Positions 11,550 to 23,606 of a DNA stretch of 38,419 nt are shown here, in pieces. The DNA is from Henriciella sp. (GTDB lineage Bacteria > Pseudomonadota > Alphaproteobacteria > Caulobacterales > Hyphomonadaceae). Location of the stretch: the NCBI GenBank assembly GCA_012960415.1, contig DUBH01000013.1, forward strand, positions 1 to 38,419, written 5' to 3'. A program made the translations under genes and the position numbers. Each line of letters begins with the position of its first letter. Within the stretch, counting starts at the first letter, position 1. The notes under the pieces are model-generated. The model searched no databases and was not told where the DNA came from. It saw only the letters and a program-made list of their open reading frames with translations.

Positions 11550-14500
11550 TTAGAGTGCGCCCGCGCCGATTGAAACCCACCTGCCTAAACGTCCATCAGC
11601 TGCGACTTCCGCGATACGCAGCTCATTCACCGAAACCTCCAGTGCCACAGCCGATTCCGGCGTCCTGAAATTCACGACCTCTGTGCCGTCTCGCAGGCCG
11701 ACGACCTCGAACAGGCGCGGCCCGGTCGGGTCCGGCAGATCCCAACTATCAGGGATGTCCGGCGCGCAGGCGAGCCAGCTTACCTGCATTCCCCCAGCTG
11801 TTTGCTTCGCCCGCAGCTGAGCGACCGGCCAAGGCAGCCCGGCCCTGCCTTCATGCCTGAAGACTTGCGGGTCAGACCCACCAGCCCGCCAGTGCATCTC
11901 GATACCGACTTCGTTGCGACTGAGCGAAGACGGCTCGAGCGCGTCATCGACGAGGACGACAAGCGCGCTCTGCTCTGCTTCGGCGGGTACGGACCCATTA
12001 ATCCCCCGAAGAAGCCCGGAGAGACGCCAGCTCCCATCCTCCTGCAAGTCTGACATTTGGAAGGATAGCGCTTCCCACCCGTCCTCGCCCTGCACCAGCA
12101 GCGTGTTTGCACCGGCGAGCACTGTTTCAGGCTCAGCGCTGGAGACTTCACCGCCAAATAGCTCAAGCGCTATCTCTGAGGCCTCATCCCATCGGTGCGC
12201 CGGTCCCGCAGATAGCGGCGCACCGATGGACGAAGGCGCTGGCACGGATGCCCGCACCGTCATTCCGCCAAGACTCCGCCCGGCTTCGACGGGGACAGGT
12301 CCGCCCCATGGTGATCCGGTTGCTGCGACCAGCGGACCGTTGGCTGACTTGCCTGGCAAGACTGGTGCATCGATCAGGATGAGTTCGGGCGTCGCTGGCA
12401 GGCGCGCGGCGGTGCCAGTGTCCGGCACAGAGCCAGCAAGCACAGACAACGCCTCCAGCGGCCGCGACAGCTCGACGTTGCGCGCGATGCCGTCATCGGT
12501 GATGTCATCTATCACCCACTCGCCGGGCAGCGTCTCGACCGATATCCGGTCGCCGGGCTCCAGAGCCAACAGGTGCGGTGGCAGAGTGAGCGATGCGCGC
12601 TCGCTCTCCACCGCCGCATTCAGCAAGTCGCCCGCCACGCGGGTTGCCTCAGCCTCCGACATGAGGAGCGGCAGGCTGGTTTCGATGCGGTAGCGCGCGT
12701 CGCCGTCCGAAATACGGGCATGCGCCACCGCAGGGGCATAGACGCCATTCGCACTGATATGGGTGAGCGTCAGATGCCCCGGCCGCTTGTCGAGCAGGAC
12801 ATGCGTCATGGATGGCCCATCCCCGGCCATCTCACCGGCTGCGACGGTCAGCGCGGCATTCTTGGCAGCTGGCTGCAATGAAAGTCCCGCTCCGCTCTCG
12901 CGGCAGCTGAACCGGTGCAGCGCCTGAAGTGGCTCCACCACCGACCGGAGCGTCGAAAGCGCTGGCACGACGAAACCTTCTACCAGCCCGTCAAGACTGT
13001 TCGCTTCTATCTCTACGCCCGACATGGCCGACAGGTCTTCGATCACGGCAGAGAGCGGCACTAGACCTGCCCGCCCGTTCAGCCAGTGACCGAGCGACCA
13101 GTTCGGACCATCGCTCCAGACGTCGTCACGAACGGGAAAATCAGGCCATGGGCGCGCGTCCCACGCCCACGCAAAGGCGGCATCGACGAATGGCTGCGCC
13201 TGCCAGAAGGAGAGCGACACTTCCAGCGCCCGACGCTGCAGCACATCATTGCGCGAACCGTCCGAAAAATGCGGCAGCGCGCTCTCGGAGCTTTTCGGGT
13301 CATAGAAAACATTCGGCGCATTTGTGCCCCGGTCGACGGCCGGAAAACCGATCTCCATGAGGCGGACGGGTTTCAGGCCGGGCGTCCAGCTGGTCGCCGT
13401 CGACGACCGGATGCCGCCCGGCCTCGGATAGTGAGACCGGCCCCACCAGTTCTCGATATCGTTCTGCCGGAAAATCCAATGCTCTCCGTGGGTACTATCT
13501 ACGATCGGCGTTCGCTCCTGCGCCGCGCGTGCCTCCGCTGAGGCGTAGTACCAGTCATAGGCCTCACCGCCCTGTAAGTTGGCTGCGAGATAGGCAGCGT
13601 CCGAAGCTCCTTCAAAACCCGCCAACGCATCAAGGTGATCTGACCCGCTGCGCCAGTCGCTGAGTGGCGGGTACCAGTCCACGCCGACAAAATCCAAATC
13701 CGGTGACGCCCAGAGCGGGTCGAGCGGAAAAAGCACGTCGCCCGATCCGTCCTGCGGGACATAGGCGCCATATTCAGTCCAGTCCGCCGCATAGGAGATG
13801 AGCGTGTCCGGCCCGAGAATGGCGCGTGCCTCCGCCGCAAGATCGATGAGCGCCTCAACGAATGGAAACACTCCGGTTTCATCGCGAAGACGAGTGAGCG
13901 CGACCATCTCGCTACCAATCAGGAAGGCATCGACACCGCCAGCCTCGGCGGCAAGGCGCGCATGGTGGAGAATGAAGTGGCGATAGCCGAACGCACCGTC
14001 GGTGCCGATGAAGGCCTCGATCTCTGTGCGCACCGCCGCTGTCCCGTCCAGCAGCGAAGTAATTCGCCCGCGCCACGGAAAAGCGCCCTGCTTTGCCCCG
14101 CCATAGGGGTCGGCCAATCCGTTTCCGGGCGGAATGTCCATCAGCAGGAAAGGCGATAGCGTGACCTCAAGTCCGTCCGCTTTCATTTGCGCAATCGCCT
14201 GCAGGACTGATCTGTCCGCCGGCGTCCCGCCATAGTTCGCCTTCCCGCTGGACTGGCTGACCAGCCGCGCCTCAGCACGAGAGAGACCCGCAACCTCCCA
14301 GCCAAAGGGGACGCTCGCACGGTCTCGTGTCTCGACACCAGGCCGGATGCGGCACGTACCTGCGCGAAGGTCATCCCCAAACCAGGCGACGGTGAGTGCC
14401 GCGCGGCGAAGCTGCGGAAAGTCATCTTGCGCCTGCGCCAACGACTGAGAGAAATTGGCCGCGCCTGCCGGATTATTCATGTTGAGCGGCGTCTCGATGC

Positions 14501-15218
14501 CCGGAAAGCGCCGTTCACGGACGATCTCTGTCGCGTAAGCGAACTCGCCGGTAGCAGGGATGATGTTCAGCCCTTCCACGACGCGCCCAAGACTGCCGTC
14601 ATCTTCCAGCGCGCGGAATACCTCGAAGCTAAGCTGCGGCAAGCGATTGCCGAAGCGGTCCAGCGGCAAGTCCTCGAAGACGATATAGGCCGTCCCGCGA
14701 TAGGCTGGCGCGTTGCCTCCGCCTTCCACCGCCTCAATCAGCGGATCTGGAAGCTGGCTCTCATCGCCGCGATAGAAGCGGTAATTGATGTCGGCGAGCG
14801 CCAGCACCTCGCCATTCGCCCAGACACGCCCGAGACGGGTGAGGGCGCCCTGCGCGATCGCGACCGCGAAGCTCACCGAATAGCTGTAGTCATTCAGCTT
14901 CGGACCGCCCTTTCCTGCAGATCGCTCGCGTCGTTTTTCCTTGAACCGGGCCGCCCAGATGACCTGTCCGCCGACCCGCGCGCGTCCATAGACAAGCGGC
15001 AGGCCCGCACCCTCGCGGCTTTCCATCAGATGCAGCGCGCTCATTCGCGGACCGTGAACGTCGCTGGCGAAAGCGCTGTCCACGGCCCGGCCCGCAAGCC
15101 CGCCCAGTGCGCCGCCAAGGGCAGCGCCTGAAATCTCCGCCCCCAGCAGGTTGAGACCGCCCGGCAGGAGCGCGCCGCCAAGGGCCTGGCCGGCCTGCGA
15201 TAGAATGATCTGTCCCAT
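11550..15218 (-). CDS. GTA gp15: megatron / host-interaction tail-fibre protein (TIM-barrel-like)
   Basis: This is the largest GTA protein (1222 residues), forming the baseplate megatron at the tail tip, equivalent to RcGTA g15. I place the start at the ATG 15216-15218. It has a GGAGG about 10 nt upstream and lies 5 bp after the g14 stop; upstream in-frame codons would overlap g14. The N-terminus is a Gly/Ala-rich amphipathic segment (GQALGGALLPGGLNLLGAEI). Residues about 270-640 fit the GTA TIM-barrel-like domain (FVGVDWYPPLSDWR, HFILHHARLA, EIGFPAVDRGTN). The remainder fits the phage-tail domain found in this family. The frame is open over its full length with no sign of decay. Confidence 0.93.
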   Translation of the reverse strand: MGQIILSQAGQALGGALLPGGLNLLGAEISGAALGGALGGLAGRAVDSAFASDVHGPRMSALHLMESREGAGLPLVYGRARVGGQVIWAARFKEKRRERSAGKGGPKLNDYSYSVSFAVAIAQGALTRLGRVWANGEVLALADINYRFYRGDESQLPDPLIEAVEGGGNAPAYRGTAYIVFEDLPLDRFGNRLPQLSFEVFRALEDDGSLGRVVEGLNIIPATGEFAYATEIVRERRFPGIETPLNMNNPAGAANFSQSLAQAQDDFPQLRRAALTVAWFGDDLRAGTCRIRPGVETRDRASVPFGWEVAGLSRAEARLVSQSSGKANYGGTPADRSVLQAIAQMKADGLEVTLSPFLLMDIPPGNGLADPYGGAKQGAFPWRGRITSLLDGTAAVRTEIEAFIGTDGAFGYRHFILHHARLAAEAGGVDAFLIGSEMVALTRLRDETGVFPFVEALIDLAAEARAILGPDTLISYAADWTEYGAYVPQDGSGDVLFPLDPLWASPDLDFVGVDWYPPLSDWRSGSDHLDALAGFEGASDAAYLAANLQGGEAYDWYYASAEARAAQERTPIVDSTHGEHWIFRQNDIENWWGRSHYPRPGGIRSSTATSWTPGLKPVRLMEIGFPAVDRGTNAPNVFYDPKSSESALPHFSDGSRNDVLQRRALEVSLSFWQAQPFVDAAFAWAWDARPWPDFPVRDDVWSDGPNWSLGHWLNGRAGLVPLSAVIEDLSAMSGVEIEANSLDGLVEGFVVPALSTLRSVVEPLQALHRFSCRESGAGLSLQPAAKNAALTVAAGEMAGDGPSMTHVLLDKRPGHLTLTHISANGVYAPAVAHARISDGDARYRIETSLPLLMSEAEATRVAGDLLNAAVESERASLTLPPHLLALEPGDRISVETLPGEWVIDDITDDGIARNVELSRPLEALSVLAGSVPDTGTAARLPATPELILIDAPVLPGKSANGPLVAATGSPWGGPVPVEAGRSLGGMTVRASVPAPSSIGAPLSAGPAHRWDEASEIALELFGGEVSSAEPETVLAGANTLLVQGEDGWEALSFQMSDLQEDGSWRLSGLLRGINGSVPAEAEQSALVVLVDDALEPSSLSRNEVGIEMHWRAGGSDPQVFRHEGRAGLPWPVAQLRAKQTAGGMQVSWLACAPDIPDSWDLPDPTGPRLFEVVGLRDGTEVVNFRTPESAVALEVSVNELRIAEVAADGRLGRWVSIGAGAL

Positions 15219-15223
15219 TGGTA

Positions 15224-15655
15224 TCAGTCCTCCAGACCAGGAAATGAGAAAGCGCCCGCAATGCGCCGCCGCCACCAGGGCACCAGCCGGGTCGCGCACA
15301 CGCTGCGGCCCCAATAGGCGTGGATGATCGTGTCAGCGCAGGTCGCGATGGCGCAGTGCTTGGCTACGCAGCCTGCGCCCATGCGAAATATCAGGACGTC
15401 GCCAGCCTCGGCTACGCCGATCGGAATTTCCCGCAACCACGAACGCCCTGCTTCAAGCAGCGTGTCTTCATTGCTGATGTCGGCCCAGTCTGGCGTATAG
15501 GGCGGCACGGAGATCGGTTCCGCCCCGACAAGCTCGCGCCAGACGCCGCGAACAAGGCCGAGGCAATCAGCCCCTGCGCCGCGTCGGCTCGCCTGATGCT
15601 GATAAGGCGTGCCCAGCCAACCGCGTGCGGCCTTGACGATGTCGGCGCGTCTCAT
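15224..15655 (-). CDS. GTA gp14: NlpC/P60 cell-wall peptidase
   Basis: This 143-residue peptidase belongs to the NlpC/P60 family and is carried at the GTA tail tip, where it is thought to cut peptidoglycan during DNA delivery (RcGTA g14). The nucleophile is Cys31 in GADCLGLVRGVW. The general-base histidine is probably His100 (VAKHCAI), with a further His at 112 (TIIHAYWG). It starts in a 4-bp overlap with the g13 stop. The g15 start lies 5 bp after its own stop, and its last codons carry the Shine-Dalgarno of g15. All catalytic positions are intact. Confidence 0.93.
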   Translation of the reverse strand: MRRADIVKAARGWLGTPYQHQASRRGAGADCLGLVRGVWRELVGAEPISVPPYTPDWADISNEDTLLEAGRSWLREIPIGVAEAGDVLIFRMGAGCVAKHCAIATCADTIIHAYWGRSVCATRLVPWWRRRIAGAFSFPGLED

Positions 15656-16293
15656 CGACGGCCTCCGTCATTGCCTGTCGCGGCAGGCCCGGAGAGCATG
15701 AAATCCTGCCCAGGCAGATGCGGAAACCCGCGATAGTTTTCCGCATTCGAGAACACATCGCGGCAGGTCTCGAACCGCTTGTCGCAGGTCTGCCCTTCGA
15801 CGCCCGTAAGGCCGCACCTTGCATCACCTAGCGCCGCATCGCATCGGCGCGAGACGAGACGCCCCACGGGCCGCTCAAGCTCCGCTTTCAGCGAAATCAG
15901 CTCGGCCTCAAATTGATCGCCGCGCTGCGTGATCTCACTCAGAAAGCCTGCCCAGACGAGGTTGTGATCATCGGTCGACTGCCAGTCCACGCGGTAGACA
16001 TGCACGCGGGCCCGGGTCCATAGACCCGCAGCAAGGTCAGCCTGTGTCAGAGCGTCGGCGACGAGCGCGCCTTCACCGCTTGCCCGTCCGGGTCGCAACC
16101 CACCAGCAGTTTCAAACCTCGCCGCCGAAAGGGCCGCGCCGGGGCTGTAGGTCACGCCGCCAAACGTCAGTACACGGTCATGATCCGTCAGGCCGACCGT
16201 GACCCCGTCTCGCCGCTCCAGTCGCCAGCAGAGGCAGGTGGTCGACGCGCCGCTTGCAAGCCTCGCCTCAAACGCTTCGTTTATCTGTTTCAT
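15652..16293 (-). CDS. GTA gp13: baseplate hub protein (DUF2163, Fe-S cysteines)
   Basis: This 213-residue hub protein is equivalent to RcGTA g13. The family ends with a conserved cysteine cluster that binds an iron-sulfur centre in the RcGTA particle. Here the cysteines lie in SRRCDAALGDARCGLTG (about 149-161), GQTCDKRFETCRDVF (about 169-178) and the following NAENYRGFPHLPG, all intact. The N-terminal half carries the DUF2163 pattern (TCLCWRLERRDG, LGFTDHD-like GLTDHDRVLTF). It overlaps g14 by 4 bp and is separated from g12 by 12 bp. Confidence 0.93.
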   Translation of the reverse strand: MKQINEAFEARLASGASTTCLCWRLERRDGVTVGLTDHDRVLTFGGVTYSPGAALSAARFETAGGLRPGRASGEGALVADALTQADLAAGLWTRARVHVYRVDWQSTDDHNLVWAGFLSEITQRGDQFEAELISLKAELERPVGRLVSRRCDAALGDARCGLTGVEGQTCDKRFETCRDVFSNAENYRGFPHLPGQDFMLSGPAATGNDGGRR

Positions 16294-16305
16294 GATGCGC
16301 CCCGC

Positions 16306-16926
16306 TCAGAAGATCTCTACCAGGGGCAGGCTCACCACCCGCCCGAACCCGGCCGTCTCGAAGCTCACTTCGAGGGCGTCCGTGTCGAAGCGCACGGGCC
16401 AGTCATATTCGAAGCCTGCTGTGAGGATGGCGCCCTCTTCCGGGGCAACATCAAAGGCGACCTCGCCCGTCACCTCGTCCACCTCCCAACCGCTCAGAAG
16501 TTCAGCGCCATTCACGCCAATGCGCACGCTATTCGCGGTAGGTTTCAGGACCGGGCGCTCAAGGCCGCCATCAGCCATGATCAGCTGGAATACGGTGCGG
16601 GTCCCGTCGCCTATGCCAATCGCTTCATCATTGGGCGACACCGCCATGCCAGGCGCCGCGCTGGAGAAGGCTGCCGGGTCGCGAAACCGAAACCCGGACA
16701 AGCGCCCACGCCGCGCATTGAAGAAGCTGACCAGACTTTCGAACGCTTCGACACTGAGCGGCGGTGTCACCACGTCCCAGCGCCTCTGAGGACGCGACCA
16801 GCGGGCATTGCGCACTTCCTTGCCGCTCGACAGCACCAGAGTCTCGGTCTGCCAGACAGGCCCGCTGGTAGAGCCAAATCCGGAGGGCACCGGCAGGCGG
16901 CATTCGTGAAAACCGGCGAGGCTCAT
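16306..16926 (-). CDS. GTA gp12: distal tail protein (DUF2460)
   Basis: This 206-residue protein is equivalent to RcGTA g12, which forms the distal tail ring joining the tail tube to the baseplate. DUF2460 markers visible here are the N-terminal FHECRLPVPSGFGSTSGP, the central RRWDVVTPPLSVEAFE and NARRGRLSGFRFRDPAAF. The C-terminus ends in a DTDALEVSFETAGFGRVVSLPLVEI strand pattern. The start overlaps the stop of the tape measure gene by 4 bp. The frame is intact and the length is as expected for the family. Confidence 0.92.
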   Translation of the reverse strand: MSLAGFHECRLPVPSGFGSTSGPVWQTETLVLSSGKEVRNARWSRPQRRWDVVTPPLSVEAFESLVSFFNARRGRLSGFRFRDPAAFSSAAPGMAVSPNDEAIGIGDGTRTVFQLIMADGGLERPVLKPTANSVRIGVNGAELLSGWEVDEVTGEVAFDVAPEEGAILTAGFEYDWPVRFDTDALEVSFETAGFGRVVSLPLVEIF

Positions 16927-17294
16927 GTGAACCTCCGCCCGATTGCGGCGGCTTTCGCCACAGCCTTGGAAAGCTCGCGTGTCGATGCGGCTTGCCTGGC
17001 GCCCACACCTGATCGCGGAAGATTGAAGGTCAGCGATGTGCCCGCCGCGCCAATGCCGGCCCGCGCGAGCGCAGCCTCGGCAGCAATGCTAGCTAAGTCG
17101 GCCAGCACCGCCCGCGTCATCTGCGAGAAGTCGAGCTCGCCAGATCGCGCGGCGCGCGACAGGGCCGCTTCTATGCCTGCGCCTGCCTCGCTGAAGGCTG
17201 CCTCGAGCGACGCTGCCGCGGCCTGTCCTGGACCGTCTGCGAGCGCGGCGAGCGCATCGCCTGCGCGGTCCAGCTCTGTCGTAAAATCATCCAT
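16923..17294 (-). CDS. GTA gp11: tail tape measure protein (short)
   Basis: This gene is in the tape-measure position between the tail chaperone gene and the distal tail gene. The product has only 123 residues from the ATG at 17292-17294, which overlaps the g10.1 stop by 8 bp (ATGGATGA). RcGTA g11 is about 219 residues. The sequence is alanine-rich and helical (ALAALADGPGQAAAASLEAAF; ALADLASIAAEAALARAG), as expected of a tape measure. The C-terminal segment has the conserved GTA-like ending KAVAKAAAIGRRFT. An upstream in-frame start (17312) would add six residues. The name rests on position and composition more than on sequence similarity I can verify. Confidence 0.78.
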   Translation of the reverse strand: MDDFTTELDRAGDALAALADGPGQAAAASLEAAFSEAGAGIEAALSRAARSGELDFSQMTRAVLADLASIAAEAALARAGIGAAGTSLTFNLPRSGVGARQAASTRELSKAVAKAAAIGRRFT

Positions 17295-17472
17295 TCGCCT
17301 CAGTCCTTTCATCCGGACGTGTTTTCATCATCAGGTCGAATTCCTTGCGCGGCAGCGCCGGACCGGAAGGGGTCGTCAGCGCGCGCCACTCTCGAAGGCT
17401 CAGTTTCCAGAATTGTGCGGGCACGATCCCCATCAGCGCCGCCGCGCGCAGCATTTCATTCCACGCCAGCAC
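17287..17472 (-). CDS. GTA gp10.1: tail assembly chaperone
   Basis: This small protein (61 residues) matches the GTA tail assembly chaperone pattern: LAWNEMLRAAALMGIVPAQFWKLSLREW, with a conserved Trp near the start and the FW...LT/SxxEl motif. I favour the GTG at 17470-17472 because a GGAGG lies exactly 6 nt upstream inside the g10 coding region. The alternative ATG at 17454 follows the g10 stop and would lose the conserved Trp. It overlaps g10 by 17 bp, and I see no slippery heptamer in the overlap, so independent initiation is more likely than frameshifting. Confidence 0.82.
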   Translation of the reverse strand: MLAWNEMLRAAALMGIVPAQFWKLSLREWRALTTPSGPALPRKEFDLMMKTRPDERTEANG

Positions 17473-17746
17473 GGAACGCCTCCGCTACGGCCGCCGCAGC
17501 GGCGGCCGGCTGGATGTCGAGCGATGCCAGTTCGGCAGGCTCAAAATGCTCACCGCCGCCTTTCATCAGTATGGAAACGAGCCGTAGAAGCTCCGCTGCC
17601 GACAGCCGCCTCATGCGCGCCTGTAGGTCTGCCAGCGATGCACACCCGAAGGCGCTCTCGATCTCTGCCAGCGCACCGAGCGTCAGGCAGAGGACCCGCT
17701 TCTGGCCGGCCACGTCCAGGCTCACTTCTCCTCGCGCGCGGTTCAT
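17456..17746 (-). CDS. GTA gp10 family protein
   Basis: This 96-residue protein of the GTA-gp10 family is encoded between the tail tube and tail chaperone genes. Recognisable features are the start MNRARGEVSLDVAGQKRVLCLTLGALAEIESAFG and a helical centre (SLADLQARMRRLSAAELLRLVSIL). An Ala-rich tail (IQPAAAAAAVAEAF) closes the protein. Its position next to a tail chaperone suggests that the two act on the tape measure together, as lambda gpG/gpGT-type partners do, but that is inference. It begins 20 bp after the g9 stop and overlaps g10.1. Confidence 0.85.
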   Translation of the reverse strand: MNRARGEVSLDVAGQKRVLCLTLGALAEIESAFGCASLADLQARMRRLSAAELLRLVSILMKGGGEHFEPAELASLDIQPAAAAAAVAEAFRAGVE

Positions 17747-17766
17747 GCGCTTGCCTCGAACGTGAT

Positions 17767-18162
17767 CTATCCTGCGCTTTGCAGATCGATCGAGAAGGTC
17801 GCCTCACCATCAAAACTGGCTGCCCAGCCAAGCTGCGCGATCTGGAACAGGCCCGTGAAGTCGCCAAAGCCCGGCACGCAGAGCTTGAAGCTGCAGAGCT
17901 CCCCTGACAGGAAGACCGCCCGAAGCCGGGCGTCGCTGGCCGCGTCCTTGAAAAGCCCTCGTCCTCGCACGCGCATGGAGCGCAGCCCTGCGTCGCCGAG
18001 CAGTTCACGCCAGCCACCCGGGCTGTCCATGCTCGTTGCGTCGACACTCTTCTGCTCGAGGTCGAAACTGCTCGTGCGGATGCCCGCCACTGTCGTGAAC
18101 GTTTCCGGCATTGCGCTATCGGAAATCTTAATCAGGACATCGCGTCCTCTTTGCCCGCTCAT
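17767..18162 (-). CDS. GTA gp9: major tail tube protein
   Basis: This 131-residue tail tube subunit is of the TP901-1 major tail protein type and equivalent to RcGTA g9. The N-terminal pattern GQRGRDVLIKISDS matches the family. The conserved segments KSVDATSMDSPGGWRELL and GRGLFKDAASD support the call. The protein has the beta-rich, small-residue composition of tube proteins. It overlaps the g8 stop by 4 bp. It should be one of the most abundant tail proteins, yet it lies in the same tightly packed operon as low-copy genes. Confidence 0.92.
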   Translation of the reverse strand: MSGQRGRDVLIKISDSAMPETFTTVAGIRTSSFDLEQKSVDATSMDSPGGWRELLGDAGLRSMRVRGRGLFKDAASDARLRAVFLSGELCSFKLCVPGFGDFTGLFQIAQLGWAASFDGEATFSIDLQSAG

Positions 18163-18593
18163 GTGCCCGCCCCCTCAAGTATGAACCGTACACGGAGGAT
18201 ACCGCGAAACTCGCGAAGATCCGGCGTGCGCATTACGTCGCTATAGAGCGTCTGGGACAGCACACTTCGCAGCCCGTCAGCGGCAAAGGAAAACGCATCC
18301 AGCACCCGGCGCAACTCGCTCAGAATGCGCATCGCCTCGGCCCGTCCACCCATCCGGCTTCGAAGGCCAAAGGTCAGCGTATGAGCGCTACCTGCGTGGC
18401 CTGCACTCCCGTTTGGACGCACATCGTGGCGTTCCAGCTCGACGCAGGGAAAGACGGGCTCATCGCTTTCGCCATCGAAGATCCGCGCCGGGTTTCCGAG
18501 GTAAGCCTGAACACCAATGTCGCTGCGTAGGACCGCCATCACGGCAAGCTGAAGCTCTGCCTCAACGCCTGAGGGGAATGTCGCCGCGCTCAT
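18159..18593 (-). CDS. GTA gp8: tail terminator protein (DUF3168)
   Basis: This 144-residue DUF3168 protein is equivalent to RcGTA g8, which caps the tail tube at the head-tail interface. Family marks are GVEAELQLAVMAVLRSDIGV, ARIFDGESDEPVFPCVELERHDVRP and the C-terminal REFRGILRVRFILEG. Its ATG directly overlaps the g6 stop (18590-18593). In RcGTA a separate g7 (stopper) lies between g6 and g8; here no space exists for it. The frame is intact. Confidence 0.91.
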   Translation of the reverse strand: MSAATFPSGVEAELQLAVMAVLRSDIGVQAYLGNPARIFDGESDEPVFPCVELERHDVRPNGSAGHAGSAHTLTFGLRSRMGGRAEAMRILSELRRVLDAFSFAADGLRSVLSQTLYSDVMRTPDLREFRGILRVRFILEGAGT

Positions 18594-19138
18594 AGCCGCA
18601 CCTCGCGGCGCGCCGAGATGATCGCCTCTGCAGCGTCCGGCACGACGACATCAGTGCTGCCACGCCGGTAGGCGGCGTCCGCCATGACCAGCAGCGCGAG
18701 CGACAAGTCTTCTGGTACGTCCGCCGCGCCGCCGAACCCGGCAATGAAATCGACCTCCACCCGCGCGCCTGCCTCTATCGCTGGCAACCAGCTGCCTTGG
18801 CGCAGGCACAGTCGCTGACCATCCAGCACGAAGCGGCTGGTGAGATCGGTCTCCACCTCCCCCACCACGCTTCGGACAGACACAAGCTCGCTGACAGGCC
18901 CCGCGGGCAGCCTGACCCCTGACCTCGCCATCAGGTCGCGAGGCCAGACCGCGAAGCTCCACCGCAGCGTCCGGCGCACCAGGCACAGCCCGGCTTGCGT
19001 TTCCAGCGCCGACCGCGCCCCGGCAATGAGCGAGGTCACCAGCTCATCTTCGCCGTCATGCCCGATGCGCAGATATGATTTCGCCTTTGAAAGAGACACA
19101 GGCTCTTCGTCTGGCGGTGTGATAACCGTCAGCGTCAT
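18590..19138 (-). CDS. GTA gp6: head-tail connector (adaptor) protein
   Basis: This is the head-tail adaptor (phiE125 gp8-like / gp6-like family), which forms a ring beneath the portal. I place the start at the ATG 19136-19138 (182 residues), because homologues begin with a short strand followed by PP..EPVSL.KAK.YLRI, exactly as in MTLTVITPPDEEPVSLSKAKSYLRI. An upstream GTG would add 15 residues reading into the intergenic hairpin region. The body shows DGEDELVTSLIAGARSALETQAG and a C-terminal helix ending SARREVRL. It follows the capsid gene after 109 bp, one of only two sizeable gaps in the GTA cluster. Confidence 0.9.
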   Translation of the reverse strand: MTLTVITPPDEEPVSLSKAKSYLRIGHDGEDELVTSLIAGARSALETQAGLCLVRRTLRWSFAVWPRDLMARSGVRLPAGPVSELVSVRSVVGEVETDLTSRFVLDGQRLCLRQGSWLPAIEAGARVEVDFIAGFGGAADVPEDLSLALLVMADAAYRRGSTDVVVPDAAEAIISARREVRL

Positions 19139-19207
19139 AATCGTTTTCCATCTATTGAAAGCTGCCTGCCCGACGGGCGACACGCGCGGTCGCCTTACGG
19201 GGCGGTA

Positions 19208-19247: not shown

Positions 19248-20423
19248 CTAGAAGACCATGGCCTTTATGGCGTCGAAGTTCTGGACGCCGCCGCCCACAC
19301 GTTTGGTCGTGTAGAACAGGACATATGGCTTGGCCGAGTAAGGATCGCGCAGGACCTGCGCGCCCTGCCGGTCAATGATGAGATAGCCGCGCCGGAAGTC
19401 ACCAAAGGCGATCGCTGCATTGCCCGTACCGATGTCCGGCATGTCTTCCAGCTCGGTGACTGGATAGCCGAAGATCGTCTGGCCTTCCCCATTCATGCCA
19501 GGGCGCCAGAGATAGCGACCATCGGAATCCTTCAGCTTACGGACGGACGCGACGCTCTTGCGGTTCATCACGAAGCGGCCATTGGAGCGGTACTGGCTCT
19601 TCGGCGTCTGGATGAGGTCGATGATCTGGTCGCCCGCATCGCTGGCGGTGAAGTCGCCCGCGACCGAGCCGATCTTGCCCCAGACATGGCTCGCCTCAGC
19701 GACAACATCATAGTCGAGGAAGCCTCTCGGCTTGCCGTCGCCATCACCTATCACAAAGGCTGCGCTCTCCTGAATGGAGAAGGCCGCCTCGACCTCATCG
19801 GCCAGCCAGGCATCGACATCGGCATAGCTGTCATTGAGCAGCGTCTGCGTTGCTGCTGGCATGGCATAGAGCTCACCTGCAGGAAATTCGAGCAGGCTGA
19901 GGCCCGCTGTCGTCGTTTGCGCACGCGCCCCCGTTTCAGCGACCCAGGCAGCACCGACACCGAGGCTGACAGGCTTGCGGTAAACGCCTGCCGTCGTCTG
20001 GCGCACACCTGCGATCTGGCGCATGGGCGAGGCCTGCATCAGCCTTGCCTCAATCAGGCGGTCAAGCTCCGGCGGCGCGGTATAGCCGCCCTGATCATCA
20101 GTGCCCGCGGACAGGGACTTCACGTCCAGACGCGCAAGCCCGCTTTCGTCGCCGCTGCGCAAATAGCGCAACCAGGCCTCACCCTGCTCCGTGCCAGATA
20201 GTGCCGGTGAGGCCTCGTCAGGGCGCGCCGCTTTCAGGCTGATCTCATCGAGGCGCCGGTCCAGCTTTTTCAGCTTTGCATCCAGCAGCGGATCATGCGT
20301 GCCCTTCGCCTCGATCTCGGCAAGGCGCTCATCATTGGCCTGCTTATAGGCCTCGAATGCCGCCATCACGTCGGCTGTTGCAGCAGTGCCTGCCTCGGCT
20401 GCCATCTTTGTTTCCTTGGTCAT
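19248..20423 (-). CDS. GTA gp5: HK97-fold major capsid protein
   Basis: This 391-residue HK97-family capsid protein is equivalent to RcGTA g5. The N-terminal 90 or so residues are a helical, charged delta/scaffold region (ADVMAAFEAYKQANDERLAEIEAK...LDRRLDEIS) expected to be removed by the prohead protease. The mature shell domain follows, with YTAPPELDRLIEARLMQASPMRQIA, GAAWVAETG, LYAMPAATQTLLND, AFVIGDGDGKPRGFL and the C-terminal FGDFRRGYLIIDRQG...YVLFYTTKRVGGG. An AAGGAG ribosome binding site lies 4 nt before the ATG, the best in the cluster, fitting a high-copy product. It starts 12 bp after g4 and is followed by a strong hairpin. Confidence 0.96.
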   Translation of the reverse strand: MTKETKMAAEAGTAATADVMAAFEAYKQANDERLAEIEAKGTHDPLLDAKLKKLDRRLDEISLKAARPDEASPALSGTEQGEAWLRYLRSGDESGLARLDVKSLSAGTDDQGGYTAPPELDRLIEARLMQASPMRQIAGVRQTTAGVYRKPVSLGVGAAWVAETGARAQTTTAGLSLLEFPAGELYAMPAATQTLLNDSYADVDAWLADEVEAAFSIQESAAFVIGDGDGKPRGFLDYDVVAEASHVWGKIGSVAGDFTASDAGDQIIDLIQTPKSQYRSNGRFVMNRKSVASVRKLKDSDGRYLWRPGMNGEGQTIFGYPVTELEDMPDIGTGNAAIAFGDFRRGYLIIDRQGAQVLRDPYSAKPYVLFYTTKRVGGGVQNFDAIKAMVF

Positions 20424-20435
20424 TTTTCTCCTTCC

Positions 20436-20846
20436 TCAGGCCGCCCGCGCGGCCCCTCCAATCTGTGTGAACCGGGCGAGTGGCTGCATCGGCGCCGCCA
20501 CCAGCGAAATCTCGACAAGGTCGACGTCGATGAGGTCCCGCCCGCCTTCAGGTCGCGGCTTCCAGAGCCGCGCGCGAAATCCGATAGACAGGCCGGAAAG
20601 ACCTGCCCTCACCGCACTTGAGGCGGCACCGCCATCAATCAGTCCACGGACGAAAAGACCGCGACCATCTTCGACGAGGCGTGTCCAGCGCCCGGCAATT
20701 GCGCCAGACCGGTGCTGCAGCAGCATCGGCACAGCGCCCGCGCGCAGGCTGCGCGCAAACGCTCCGGCCCTCACTACGTCGCCAGACAGATCCGCAGCGC
20801 CAAACAGGGCCGCATAGCCTTCAACCAGAAGCAGCGCGGTTTTCAT
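20436..20846 (-). CDS. GTA gp4: HK97-family prohead protease
   Basis: This prohead serine protease (136 residues, family S78-like) should cleave the capsid scaffold region during maturation. The catalytic residues seen are His45 in MLLQHRSG and Ser87 in LSGLSIGF. The ending VDLVEISLVAAPMQPLA contains the conserved L.EIS.V..P signature. It overlaps g3.5 by 4 bp and precedes the capsid gene by 12 bp, the usual order. All catalytic positions look intact. Confidence 0.94.
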   Translation of the reverse strand: MKTALLLVEGYAALFGAADLSGDVVRAGAFARSLRAGAVPMLLQHRSGAIAGRWTRLVEDGRGLFVRGLIDGGAASSAVRAGLSGLSIGFRARLWKPRPEGGRDLIDVDLVEISLVAAPMQPLARFTQIGGAARAA

Positions 20847-21067
20847 GGCTTCGCCTCCAGCCGGGCTTCAATCCGGTCCAGCTGGTTCTCGATCGCCTCG
20901 AGATGCGCTTCCACTCGCGCCAGTCGCTCGGCGACCGGGCGTGCAATGTCCGCGCGCTGTTCCAGCATGGAAATCCGCTCTGCTGCAGCCCCCGCCCAGA
21001 CGAGCGCCCCGCCCGTCTGCAGCGCGAGCGCCAGTATGAAACCGGCCGTTATCTTGCGCTCAATCAT
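20843..21067 (-). CDS. GTA gp3.5-type small membrane/coiled-coil protein
   Basis: This 74-residue protein sits where RcGTA has g3.5, between portal and protease. It has one hydrophobic N-terminal segment (TAGFILALALQTGGALVWAGAA, residues 7-28). A heptad-like helix follows (ISMLEQRADIARPVAERLARVEAHLEAIENQLDRIEARLEA, about residues 32-72), predicted to be a coiled coil. The function in GTA production is unknown to me. It overlaps both neighbours by 4 bp, which argues that it is truly translated. Confidence 0.82.
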   Translation of the reverse strand: MIERKITAGFILALALQTGGALVWAGAAAERISMLEQRADIARPVAERLARVEAHLEAIENQLDRIEARLEAKP

Positions 21068-22179
21068 CGACTGAGCCCCGCCAGAGCGCGCTTTTCTTCG
21101 GTGGTCAGGAAACTCGCCGCCTCAAGCCGCGCCCACAGCGCATCCCGCTCACCGGAGAAGGCCGGTACGTCTTCAAGGTCCGGGCGCACCTCGACATCAT
21201 CGAACCGTCCCGACAGCCAGACACTCAATGCGTCGGCAACCTTGTGCACCAGAGGCAGCACCGTCAGGCGCCAGAAGGCGAGGTTCGCTTCCTTATAGGT
21301 CGCATAGGTATTGTCGCCCGGAATGCCGAGCAGCATGGGTGGTACCCCGAAGGCGAGCGCGATCTCCCGCGCGGCCGCATGGCGCGTGCCTGCAAAATCC
21401 ATCTCTGCGGGCGATAGCGACATCGGCTTCCAGTCGAGCCCGCCATCGAGCAGAAGCGGACGCCCGGCGTTCGCCGCACCGGAATGCGCGTTTTCCAACT
21501 CTTCCTTGAGACGATCGAATTGCGACGGCGTCAGGCCCGCTCCCTCGCCGTCATAGACCAGCGCGCCAGAGGGCCGCGCCGCATTCTCGATCAGCGCCTT
21601 CGCCCAGGCCGCCGCACCATTGTGAAGGTCCAACGCCTTGCGCGCCGCCGCCAATGGCGAAAGCCCCATCACGCTGTCTGAAGGATGATAGAGTTTGAGG
21701 TGGAGCACAGGGCTCCAGCCATCAGCCTCACGATAGATGATCCGCTCGCCGCGGCGCTTGCGCACCGCCCAGCCAATCAGGCCGCCCTCGCTATTCGTCT
21801 GCGGGCGGACGGTGTCCGCGCGCAGCCCGAAAAGGCCTTTGGGCGCAGCCTCTCCGGCAAGAGTCACGGCCTCGGCCCAGGCATTGCCCGTAATCTGCAG
21901 GTCGCCATAAAGCCGCTCAAGCAGCACCCTGCCTGCCTCATCCGGTGACGGCCGCGCCAGCAGCGCGCTGACATCCTCGTCATTCGTCGTCAGCGGAATG
22001 GAGGCGGCCGCCTCTGCAATCATCCGCACACACCGATAAGCGATCGCGTTTCCAGCATAGCCGTCGCGCATCAGCGCGCTCGCATCCTGGCCGCCCCAGC
22101 CTGCGCCTGGCAGGCTCGCCAGCGCAATGAAAGAGGTTTGCGCCGAACGCGTCTCGACTGTCTGCCAGGGCCATCTCAT
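21064..22179 (-). CDS. GTA gp3: HK97-family portal protein
   Basis: This 371-residue portal protein forms the dodecameric DNA gate of the head, equivalent to RcGTA g3. Family features are AYRCVRMIAEAAASIPL near the N-terminus, LERLYGDLQITGNAWAE and VLHLKLYHPSDSVMGLSPLAAA. The C-terminal segment ALAFGVPPMLLGIPGDNTYATYKEANLAFW is the typical portal motif, followed by VHKVADALSVWL. An AAGGAG about 11 nt upstream of the ATG is the likely ribosome binding site. The gene begins 170 bp after the end of the terminase frame, an unusually large gap for this cluster, and overlaps g3.5 by 4 bp. Confidence 0.95.
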   Translation of the reverse strand: MRWPWQTVETRSAQTSFIALASLPGAGWGGQDASALMRDGYAGNAIAYRCVRMIAEAAASIPLTTNDEDVSALLARPSPDEAGRVLLERLYGDLQITGNAWAEAVTLAGEAAPKGLFGLRADTVRPQTNSEGGLIGWAVRKRRGERIIYREADGWSPVLHLKLYHPSDSVMGLSPLAAARKALDLHNGAAAWAKALIENAARPSGALVYDGEGAGLTPSQFDRLKEELENAHSGAANAGRPLLLDGGLDWKPMSLSPAEMDFAGTRHAAAREIALAFGVPPMLLGIPGDNTYATYKEANLAFWRLTVLPLVHKVADALSVWLSGRFDDVEVRPDLEDVPAFSGERDALWARLEAASFLTTEEKRALAGLSR

Positions 22180-22349: not shown

Positions 22350-23606
22350 TTAAAGCGGTCGAATACAGGGCTGACGCCCTGTGGCCGCCTCCAGTGTCGT
22401 GATCGCCCACACCAGTGCATCTACCCTGTCAGGCGAGCCCTGCATCGCGCCGCTGCCAAACTGCAGCATTTCTTCTTCCAGTTCGGCAAACTGCCCCGCA
22501 TGCGACACGCGCCCGCGCTCATAGAGGGCGATAACGGGCGCGGCGCGCGCTGCCTTGGAAAGCCGCGCATGCACCAGCTGGATCGGCACATCGCACCCGC
22601 CCGACCGCAGGACGGAGCGGACCAGCTCACCGCCCTGATTGGCCTCGGCCACGATCCGGCTTGCCCCCATACGGACAGCCAGCGTCACGGCGGCTTCGGC
22701 CTATACGGCAGGCGATTTCCCTTGAAGCGTCGCATCCTCCAGAACCCAGTATTGACCCCCGCCACCGGCCGCATTGGTCGCGCCTGCCGCTAACAGGCCG
22801 CAGGCATCAGCGCCTTCTCCGATACTGACAGGCGGGTCGACCGCGACGATGATGTCACCGAGTTTTGGCGGCGGCCTGCCAGCGCGCGCGGCCAGCAGCA
22901 TGGCGCGTGTCCAGAAAACACCGTCCTCGGCCTCCAGAAACTCGCCCTCCAGCTCCTGACGGCCAAGACGGGTGCCGCCCATGCGCGCCTCGATATGAGA
23001 GATGAATGCAGGCGACAGGAAGTCGGCATTGTCCCGTGTGGCGCTTCGCGTGACGGCCACCCCGCCCTCAGTCATCAGCTGACGGATTAGCGGCGTTCGC
23101 CGCGGCGTCGTCGTTATGACAGCGCGCGGATGCCGCCCGAGCCGCAGGCCCAGCTGCAGCATCTCGAACGTATCCTTGTCCCGTTTCCAGGCGGCGACCT
23201 CATCGCACCAGGCTCCGTCAAACTGCGGGCCGCGCAAACTGTCAGGGTCTTCAGAGGAGAAAGCCTGCGCCACCGCGCCATTTGGCCAGACCAGCCTGCG
23301 GCGAGAGCTTTCATAGACAGGCAGCGCTTCGTCCGGCCGCGCGATGTGGCAGAGCCCGGACACCCCGTCGATCATCGTCTCGCGCACATCATGCAGGGTC
23401 GGGCCAACCAGCGCGATGGAACGAAGCCCGCCGAACAGCGCGCCAAATCGAACCCATTCAGCCCCTGCCCGTGTCTTGCCAGACCCCCGCCCACCAAGCG
23501 CCAGCCAGCTATTCCAGTCACCAGTGGGCGCACACTGGGGGCCACGCGCCGTCAGCACGAATGGCAGGGCCGCATCGCCCGCCAGCTCATTCACTGTATC
23601 TGTCAT
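22350..23606 (-). pseudogene. GTA gp2: large terminase (TerL), interrupted by an in-frame amber codon
   Basis: TerL packages DNA into the GTA head with an ATPase and a nuclease domain. From the ATG at 23604-23606 the frame reads 301 residues, hits TAG at 22701-22703, and continues in the same frame for a further 116 codons to TAA. The N-terminal part has Walker A GGRGSGKT (residues 38-45), Walker B ending WCDE (133-136), the coupling TTT (165-167) and the first nuclease Asp257 (IVAVDPP). After the stop come the rest of the RNase H-like nuclease: EANQGGELV and DRVDALVWA. The stop sits in GKSPAV*AEAA, where the family has SPxxWA, so TAG replaces TGG. Truncation would leave the ATPase but remove most of the nuclease. 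Read-through, suppression or sequencing error are the alternatives. Confidence 0.88.

What the first reader, a model, noticed from the sequence alone, without database searches (positions are those of the whole stretch)
22350..23606. GTA terminase gene carries an in-frame amber codon at a conserved Trp position
The terminase frame is continuous from 23606 to 22350 except for one TAG at 22701-22703. Walker A, Walker B and the first nuclease Asp lie before it; the rest of the nuclease lies after it in the same frame. The context GKSPAV*AEAAV fits the family pattern SPxxWA, so a single G-to-A change (TGG to TAG) explains it. All other GTA genes are open. Either packaging was lost very recently while the structural genes still look intact, or the stop is read through or suppressed, giving low-level full-length TerL and a way to throttle a lethal system, or it is a sequencing error. 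If real, particles might assemble empty.
Basis: partly seen in the sequence, partly recalled or inferred. Interest (0 to 1): 0.8.

Follow-up and report, generated by a model that had tools for sequence, protein, structure and literature searches.

The report
Decaying gene transfer agent with stops
A marine bacterium's gene transfer agent, a tamed phage that ships host DNA between cells, carries a premature stop in its DNA-packaging gene and a newer one in a tail gene, so it looks like an early stage of ordinary gene decay.

Summary
The stop is real: the terminase (g2/TerL) frame of an RcGTA-like cluster in a Henriciella-group genome is open from 23606 to 22350 except for TAG at 22701-22703, at a Trp position kept in 79 of 81 distinct sequences. 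A second assembly, an IMG/VR contig from a Guaymas Basin plume metagenome (one mismatch in 12,347 bp), has the same TAG, so a plain assembly error is unlikely. So terL broke first, g9 later. No CTA-anticodon tRNA was found among 40 tRNA hits, and TAG is the conserved natural stop of four other window genes. A sibling, H. barbarensis, has its own terL frame break. Among 105 family genomes, GTA remnants, deletions and fusions are common, but a broken terL with portal, capsid and g15 near full length is rare (2 of 55). dN/dS shows no relaxation in terL, so the stop is recent. Best reading: recent stepwise GTA loss, a kind of decay already in print. Readthrough throttling is not excluded but has no positive evidence.

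The parts
22350..23606 (-). g2 / terL, large terminase, interrupted
22701..22703 (-). internal TAG in terL, codon 302; relatives have Trp
   Evidence: same TAG in IMG/VR contig L131/L171
23472..23495 (-). Walker A (GGRGSGKT), before the stop
   Evidence: motif name recalled; coordinates counted by hand
23199..23216 (-). Walker B region (GAWCDE), before the stop
   Evidence: motif name recalled; coordinates counted by hand
22836..22838 (-). first nuclease Asp (IVAVDPP), before the stop
   Evidence: catalytic role recalled
22644..22646 (-). second nuclease acidic residue (IVAEANQGG), after the stop
   Evidence: catalytic role recalled
22419..22421 (-). third nuclease Asp (PDRVDAL), after the stop
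   Evidence: catalytic role recalled
21064..22179 (-). g3 portal, open
20436..20846 (-). g4 prohead protease, open
19248..20423 (-). g5 major capsid, open, natural stop TAG shared by six siblings
17456..19183 (-). g6, g8, g9 and g10 (connector, tail completion, tail tube, GTA-gp10)
17767..17769 (-). second premature TAG, in g9, eight codons before the siblings' TGA; that TGA overlaps the g10 start (ATGA)
11550..17312 (-). g11 to g15 (tape-measure-like, distal tail, hub, NlpC/P60, megatron), open

Best explanation
This is an RcGTA-like gene transfer agent cluster in the early, stepwise phase of loss. A nonsense mutation arose recently in terL and is shared by two near-identical assemblies; a second nonsense mutation, in g9, is in this genome only. 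The truncated TerL keeps the ATPase domain and the first nuclease Asp but lacks most of the nuclease, so it should be unable to cut and package host DNA, and gene transfer should be lost. By analogy with the RcGTA small-terminase mutant, induced cells would make immature DNA-free heads, mostly without tails. Lysis may continue if the lysis genes lie elsewhere, as in R. capsulatus, so the allele may lose the benefit without escaping the cost. Shown: both stops, their distribution and order, and no relaxed selection yet in terL. Inferred: loss of packaging, the particle phenotype, and continued lysis.
For: Same terL TAG in a second assembly with 1 mismatch in 12,347 bp. Trp kept in 79 of 81 distinct sequences. 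A second stop in g9, absent from that assembly and from six siblings. Three plausible internal stops in 241 genes, two of them in the GTA. A separate terL frame break in H. barbarensis and frequent deletion, fusion and remnant clusters in the family. Only one terL match in the genome. No CTA anticodon. Pseudogenisation of GTAs in several alphaproteobacterial lineages is in print (PMC10883770, passages).
Against: terL is not under relaxed selection: own-branch omega 0.075 against 0.068, and 0.061 against 0.038 after the stop. That fits a very recent stop but also a gene still in use. Elsewhere G018 also has three flagged internal stops relative to this genome, in 245 genes, so species-specific stops are not unique to the GTA. 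I cannot show that the metagenome contig comes from different reads. The g9 stop removes only eight residues and may be tolerated. No experiment was possible.
Confidence: 0.87

Rival explanations
1. Sequencing or assembly error: the real terL codon is sense.
For: No reads were available; the genome is a draft of 86 contigs; I cannot exclude that the metagenome contig was built from the same reads.
Against: The TAG is in two assemblies that differ at another site. The two clearest stops both fall in the GTA, not scattered over 241 genes.
Confidence: 0.05
2. The stop is read through or suppressed at a low level, giving a little full-length TerL and throttling a lethal system.
For: No relaxed selection after the stop (omega 0.061, 2dlnL 0.54). 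The reading frame is otherwise open.
Against: No CTA anticodon among 40 tRNA hits, though the draft may lack some tRNA genes. TAG is the conserved stop of four other window genes, the capsid gene among them. The five closest siblings have no such stop. The position is almost invariant Trp, so an inserted residue may not work. A second stop in g9 points to decay.
Confidence: 0.04
3. Split terminase: translation restarts at GTG 22688 and the nuclease part works in trans.
For: A 112-codon frame starts at GTG 22688, just after the stop.
Against: No clear ribosome-binding site before it (by eye). The same GTG is an ordinary Val codon in the four closest siblings. The break lies inside the nuclease domain and separates its first acidic residue from the other two.
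Confidence: 0.02
4. Adaptive change of use: the group keeps the cluster for DNA-free particles.
For: Two of the six closest genomes (this one and H. barbarensis) have separate terL lesions while portal, capsid and g15 are near full length, and g3-g5 show purifying selection.
Against: The g9 stop. In RcGTA, loss of the small terminase leaves heads almost without tails (PMC6854486, section 8). Other clusters in the family decay in capsid or g15 or by deletion.
Confidence: 0.02

Closest known systems
RcGTA of Rhodobacter capsulatus (head-tail cluster, g2 TerL)
   Same: Gene content and order g2 to g15, GTA megatron g15, and a TerL with Pro and Cys ten residues apart, as reported for GTA-type TerLs (PMC7947584, passages).
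   Different: terL and g9 carry premature stops; no g1 (small terminase) was identified here.
Pseudogenised or lost GTA clusters in alphaproteobacteria (PMC10883770, passages)
   Same: Inactivated GTA genes in a lineage whose relatives keep them; proposed there as recent cheater lineages or their outcome.
   Different: Here the lesions are two point stops in an otherwise near-complete cluster, and their order can be read. A terL mutant may still lyse, so it need not be a cost-free cheater (inference).
RcGTA g1 (small terminase) deletion mutant (PMC6854486, section 8)
   Same: Packaging complex lost while capsid and portal remain; the likely model for the phenotype.
   Different: That was a laboratory deletion of the small terminase, not a natural stop in the large one.
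Caulobacter GTA terminase deletion (PMC9632790, passages)
   Same: Loss of the terminase, portal or capsid gene removed the GTA-dependent gain in survival after DNA damage.
   Different: Laboratory strain; a whole gene was removed.

Membership tests
RcGTA-like gene transfer agent | Head-tail gene order g2-g15 with the GTA megatron | tested here: met
   (NF048004 GTA_megatron over its cut-off)
RcGTA-like gene transfer agent | Fixed chromosomal place shared with relatives | tested here: met
   Same flanking genes (hsp33, adh; cbpA, PepSY, regulator) in six sibling genomes
RcGTA-like gene transfer agent | GTA-type TerL residues (Pro and Cys ten residues apart) | tested here: met
   DPPVSIGEGADAC against PMC7947584 passages; matched by spacing, not by alignment to RcGTA
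RcGTA-like gene transfer agent | Packages random host DNA | not testable with these tools
   Needs particles; predicted to be lost
Terminase_6 large terminase | Complete ATPase plus nuclease in one open frame | tested here: not met
   Both domains recognisable but split by TAG
Pseudogene in a decaying GTA | Disabling lesion absent from close relatives | tested here: met
Pseudogene in a decaying GTA | Relaxed selection (raised dN/dS) | tested here: inconclusive
   terL not raised (2dlnL 0.07; 1.26); g12-g14 raised nominally (2dlnL 6.28), one of 15 overlapping gene sets tested, not significant after correction
Amber readthrough or suppressed gene | Suppressor tRNA or TAG tolerated elsewhere in the genome | tested here: not met
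   No CTA anticodon among 40 hits; TAG is a conserved natural stop; no run of internal TAGs in 241 genes

The most novel reading that the evidence does not exclude
This Henriciella group may be losing DNA packaging before structure: two of the six closest genomes have separately broken terL, one by a stop and one by a frame break, both within the nuclease domain, while portal, capsid and g15 stay near full length and terL shows no relaxed selection. The cluster might be kept for DNA-free particles or for the ATPase half alone, or the stop might be read through at a low level.
Probability: 0.05. Interest if true: 0.8.

Novelty: new member of a known kind. Interest (0 to 1): 0.32.

Why it matters
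How a lethal, altruistic system such as a GTA is kept or lost is an open question. A natural terL stop with nearly all else intact, plus a later stop in g9 carried by only one of two near-identical assemblies, gives a rare look at the order of loss. It also offers a natural test of whether cells that cannot package DNA still pay the cost of lysis, which decides whether such mutants are cheaters or merely broken.

Tried and rejected
Genome-wide amber suppression: no support. A spare terL: one match only, to Terminase_6N and to a sibling TerL; other terminase families were not searched. A restart product: no clear ribosome-binding site (by eye). A rule that terL breaks first: not supported in the family, where other clusters have a stop in the capsid gene (G026), internal stops in g15 (G011, G122), a frame break in g15 (G103), a stop in the portal gene (G117), or deletions that leave terL open.

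Not counted as lesions: g15 stops reported that fell within the first 31 query positions or at the last one (G022, G108, G127, G111, G123, G110), those of G114 and G033 that did not reappear, the one of the two G011 stops near position 25, and the TAG in G015 terL, which lies at position 400 of 418, near the natural end. A first version of the genome comparison was swamped by antisense frames and was replaced. A small terminase upstream of terL was sought among short conserved frames without a convincing candidate. Solved structures: the C-piece had no match; an intact sibling TerL matched only T4 gp17, weakly (E 0.028). Paper searches: 'gene transfer agent' with 'Henriciella' gave none; with 'Hyphomonadaceae' two; with 'nonsense' and 'terminase' one, the Caulobacter GTA study. 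PMC13236601 was looked at for terminase mutants; its two passages were reference-list entries. PMC8190135 only lists the metagenome. No structure was predicted.

Full report
What was checked. The window is contig C13 of a 3.52 Mb, 86-contig genome. Its nearest relatives are Henriciella species: G004, G017 and G014 have contigs of the same lengths as H. algicola, H. marina and H. barbarensis. The minus strand holds an RcGTA-like cluster, g2 to g15, from 23606 down to 11550. The terL frame has one internal stop, TAG at 22701-22703. The piece before it matches Terminase_6N and the piece after it Terminase_6C.

The codon. Aligned to the sibling G004 protein, 114 loci cover this column, 81 of them distinct by sequence: 79 have Trp, one is this gene, and one (G019) is a terL-g15 fusion misaligned there. 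The set mixes genome, metagenome and viral-collection loci. All five closest siblings (G004, G018, G017, G014, G002) have a Trp codon.

Not a simple artefact. An IMG/VR contig (L131/L171) of metagenome 3300001683 matches the window over 12,347 bp with one mismatch and has the same TAG. Three papers hold that metagenome number; passages of one tie it to Guaymas Basin plumes (PMC4962555). I cannot tell whether this genome was assembled from the same reads, so this is strong but not final.

A second stop. The one mismatch lies at 17769. There this genome has a TAG in g9, the tail tube gene, eight codons before the TGA that all six sibling genomes use; that TGA overlaps the g10 start. The metagenome contig and all six siblings have a sense codon. 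The terL stop is thus shared and older, the g9 stop private and younger. Of 22 window genes whose ends were compared, g9 was the only one that ends short of all siblings.

Suppression. The genome search gave 40 tRNA hits. ARAGORN typed 39 of them, none with anticodon CTA; the 40th, on contig C82, reads CCT by eye from its sequence. TAG is the natural stop of hsp33, adh, the capsid gene and the PepSY gene, at the same codon in all six siblings, which there use TAG in most cases. In 241 gene comparisons with G018 over contigs C32, C83 and C13, 15 genes had any stop in this genome: 10 in the first 12% of the frame, where the start is uncertain; one (PepSY) upstream of the conserved start; one in a weak frame; and three plausible internal stops: terL, g9, and a TAA at codon 810 of an 860-codon gene that was not followed up. 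The reverse comparison, 245 genes, flagged three internal stops in G018, none in the GTA. By hand, taking about 12 of the 241 genes as GTA genes, two or more of three stops falling there has a chance of about 0.007.

Selection. Maximum-likelihood codon models on six genomes gave an own-branch omega of 0.075 for terL against 0.068 elsewhere (2dlnL 0.07); 0.083 against 0.074 before the stop and 0.061 against 0.038 after it. The 95% upper limit for the whole gene is about 0.14 by interpolation. If sites evolved freely after the stop, it is younger than roughly a tenth of the branch (hand calculation). A five-genome fit gave 0.079 against 0.051 (2dlnL 1.26), and flanking genes 0.030 against 0.031. 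g12-g14 were raised (0.150 against 0.081, 2dlnL 6.28): nominally significant, but one of 15 overlapping sets tested. The H. barbarensis branch of terL was not raised either (0.048 against 0.075).

Relatives. H. barbarensis (G014) has its own terL lesion, a one-base frame break nearly 40 codons before the codon discussed here. Of 105 family genomes, 82 have a terL match. In 55, portal, capsid and g15 each match over at least 80% of the query (stops allowed); 53 of these have an open terL, and the two that do not are this genome and H. barbarensis (hand-copied lists; in G005 the terL counted as open is only 48% identical and probably another phage's, its GTA terL being cut by a contig end). In 13 genomes early cluster genes lie close to the 3' part of g15 with the middle missing (G003, G007, G019, G028, G066, G069, G073, G075, G076, G083, G086, G091, G094), some as in-frame fusions (G019, G073, G086). 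Others keep only remnants. Point lesions also occur in capsid (G026), portal (G117) and g15 (G011, G122, G103). GTA decay is thus common in this family and not specific to terL; some of these genomes are fragmented drafts, so single cases may be assembly faults.

Mechanism. TerL cuts and translocates DNA. The truncated protein keeps the ATPase domain, which binds the small terminase in R. capsulatus (PMC6854486, passages), but lacks two of the three nuclease acidic residues (roles recalled). In the R. capsulatus g1 mutant, heads with portals form, no DNA is recovered and tail peptides are almost absent; the lysis genes lie elsewhere and are expected to be unaffected (PMC6854486, section 8). 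In Caulobacter, deleting the terminase, portal or capsid gene removed the GTA-dependent gain in survival after DNA damage (PMC9632790, passages). So this allele should abolish transfer but perhaps not lysis. Rho-dependent polarity from the untranslated stretch could also lower g3-g15, and the g9 stop could weaken coupling to g10; both are inference. Lysis and regulatory genes were not sought in this genome.

Known or new. Pseudogenisation and loss of GTAs in several alphaproteobacterial lineages, and their reading as possible cheaters, are in print (PMC10883770, abstract and passages). Models of GTA maintenance treat defective alleles and their replacement (PMC6209664, passages). This is a new member of that known kind, with the useful extra that the order of two lesions can be read.

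Verdict. A real, recent inactivation in a decaying GTA, not a demonstrated control switch. Interest is modest, 0.32.

Noticed in passing
window 17767-17769 (-): Second premature TAG, in g9, absent from the near-identical metagenome contig and from six siblings. Made part of the finding.
   Followed up: yes
L006:1479-2735 and L115 (G014, H. barbarensis): Independent one-base frame break in terL, nearly 40 codons before the codon discussed here, in the same nuclease domain.
   Followed up: partly
L177-L187, L200, L201: In 13 family genomes the middle of the GTA cluster is missing and early genes lie close to the 3' part of g15, some as in-frame fusions (G019, G073, G086). Why the g15 end so often remains is not explained; ascertainment may play a part.
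   Followed up: partly
L114:1600-7000 (G017, H. marina) against G014: H. marina and H. barbarensis are 96-100% identical over more than 5 kb upstream of and into the start of terL, then drop to about 67-88% inside the GTA, where H. marina is closer to this genome. This looks like a recent exchange between species with one end inside terL.
   Followed up: partly
window 15224-16926 (-), g12-g14: Own-branch omega nominally raised (0.150 against 0.081; g14 0.133 against 0.048); not significant after correction.
   Followed up: partly
L190, L189, L198, L192, L205: Single lesions in other GTA genes: capsid TAG (G026), internal g15 stops (G011, G122), g15 frame break (G103), portal stop (G117).
   Followed up: partly
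G000 contig C32 against G018:C1:2639185-2641764: A TAA at codon 810 of an 860-codon gene, the one plausible internal stop outside the GTA among the compared genes.
   Followed up: no
L129 (G000:C82:1653-1711): A tRNA hit that ARAGORN did not call; read by eye it has anticodon CCT (Arg), with A+T-rich sequence on one side.
   Followed up: partly
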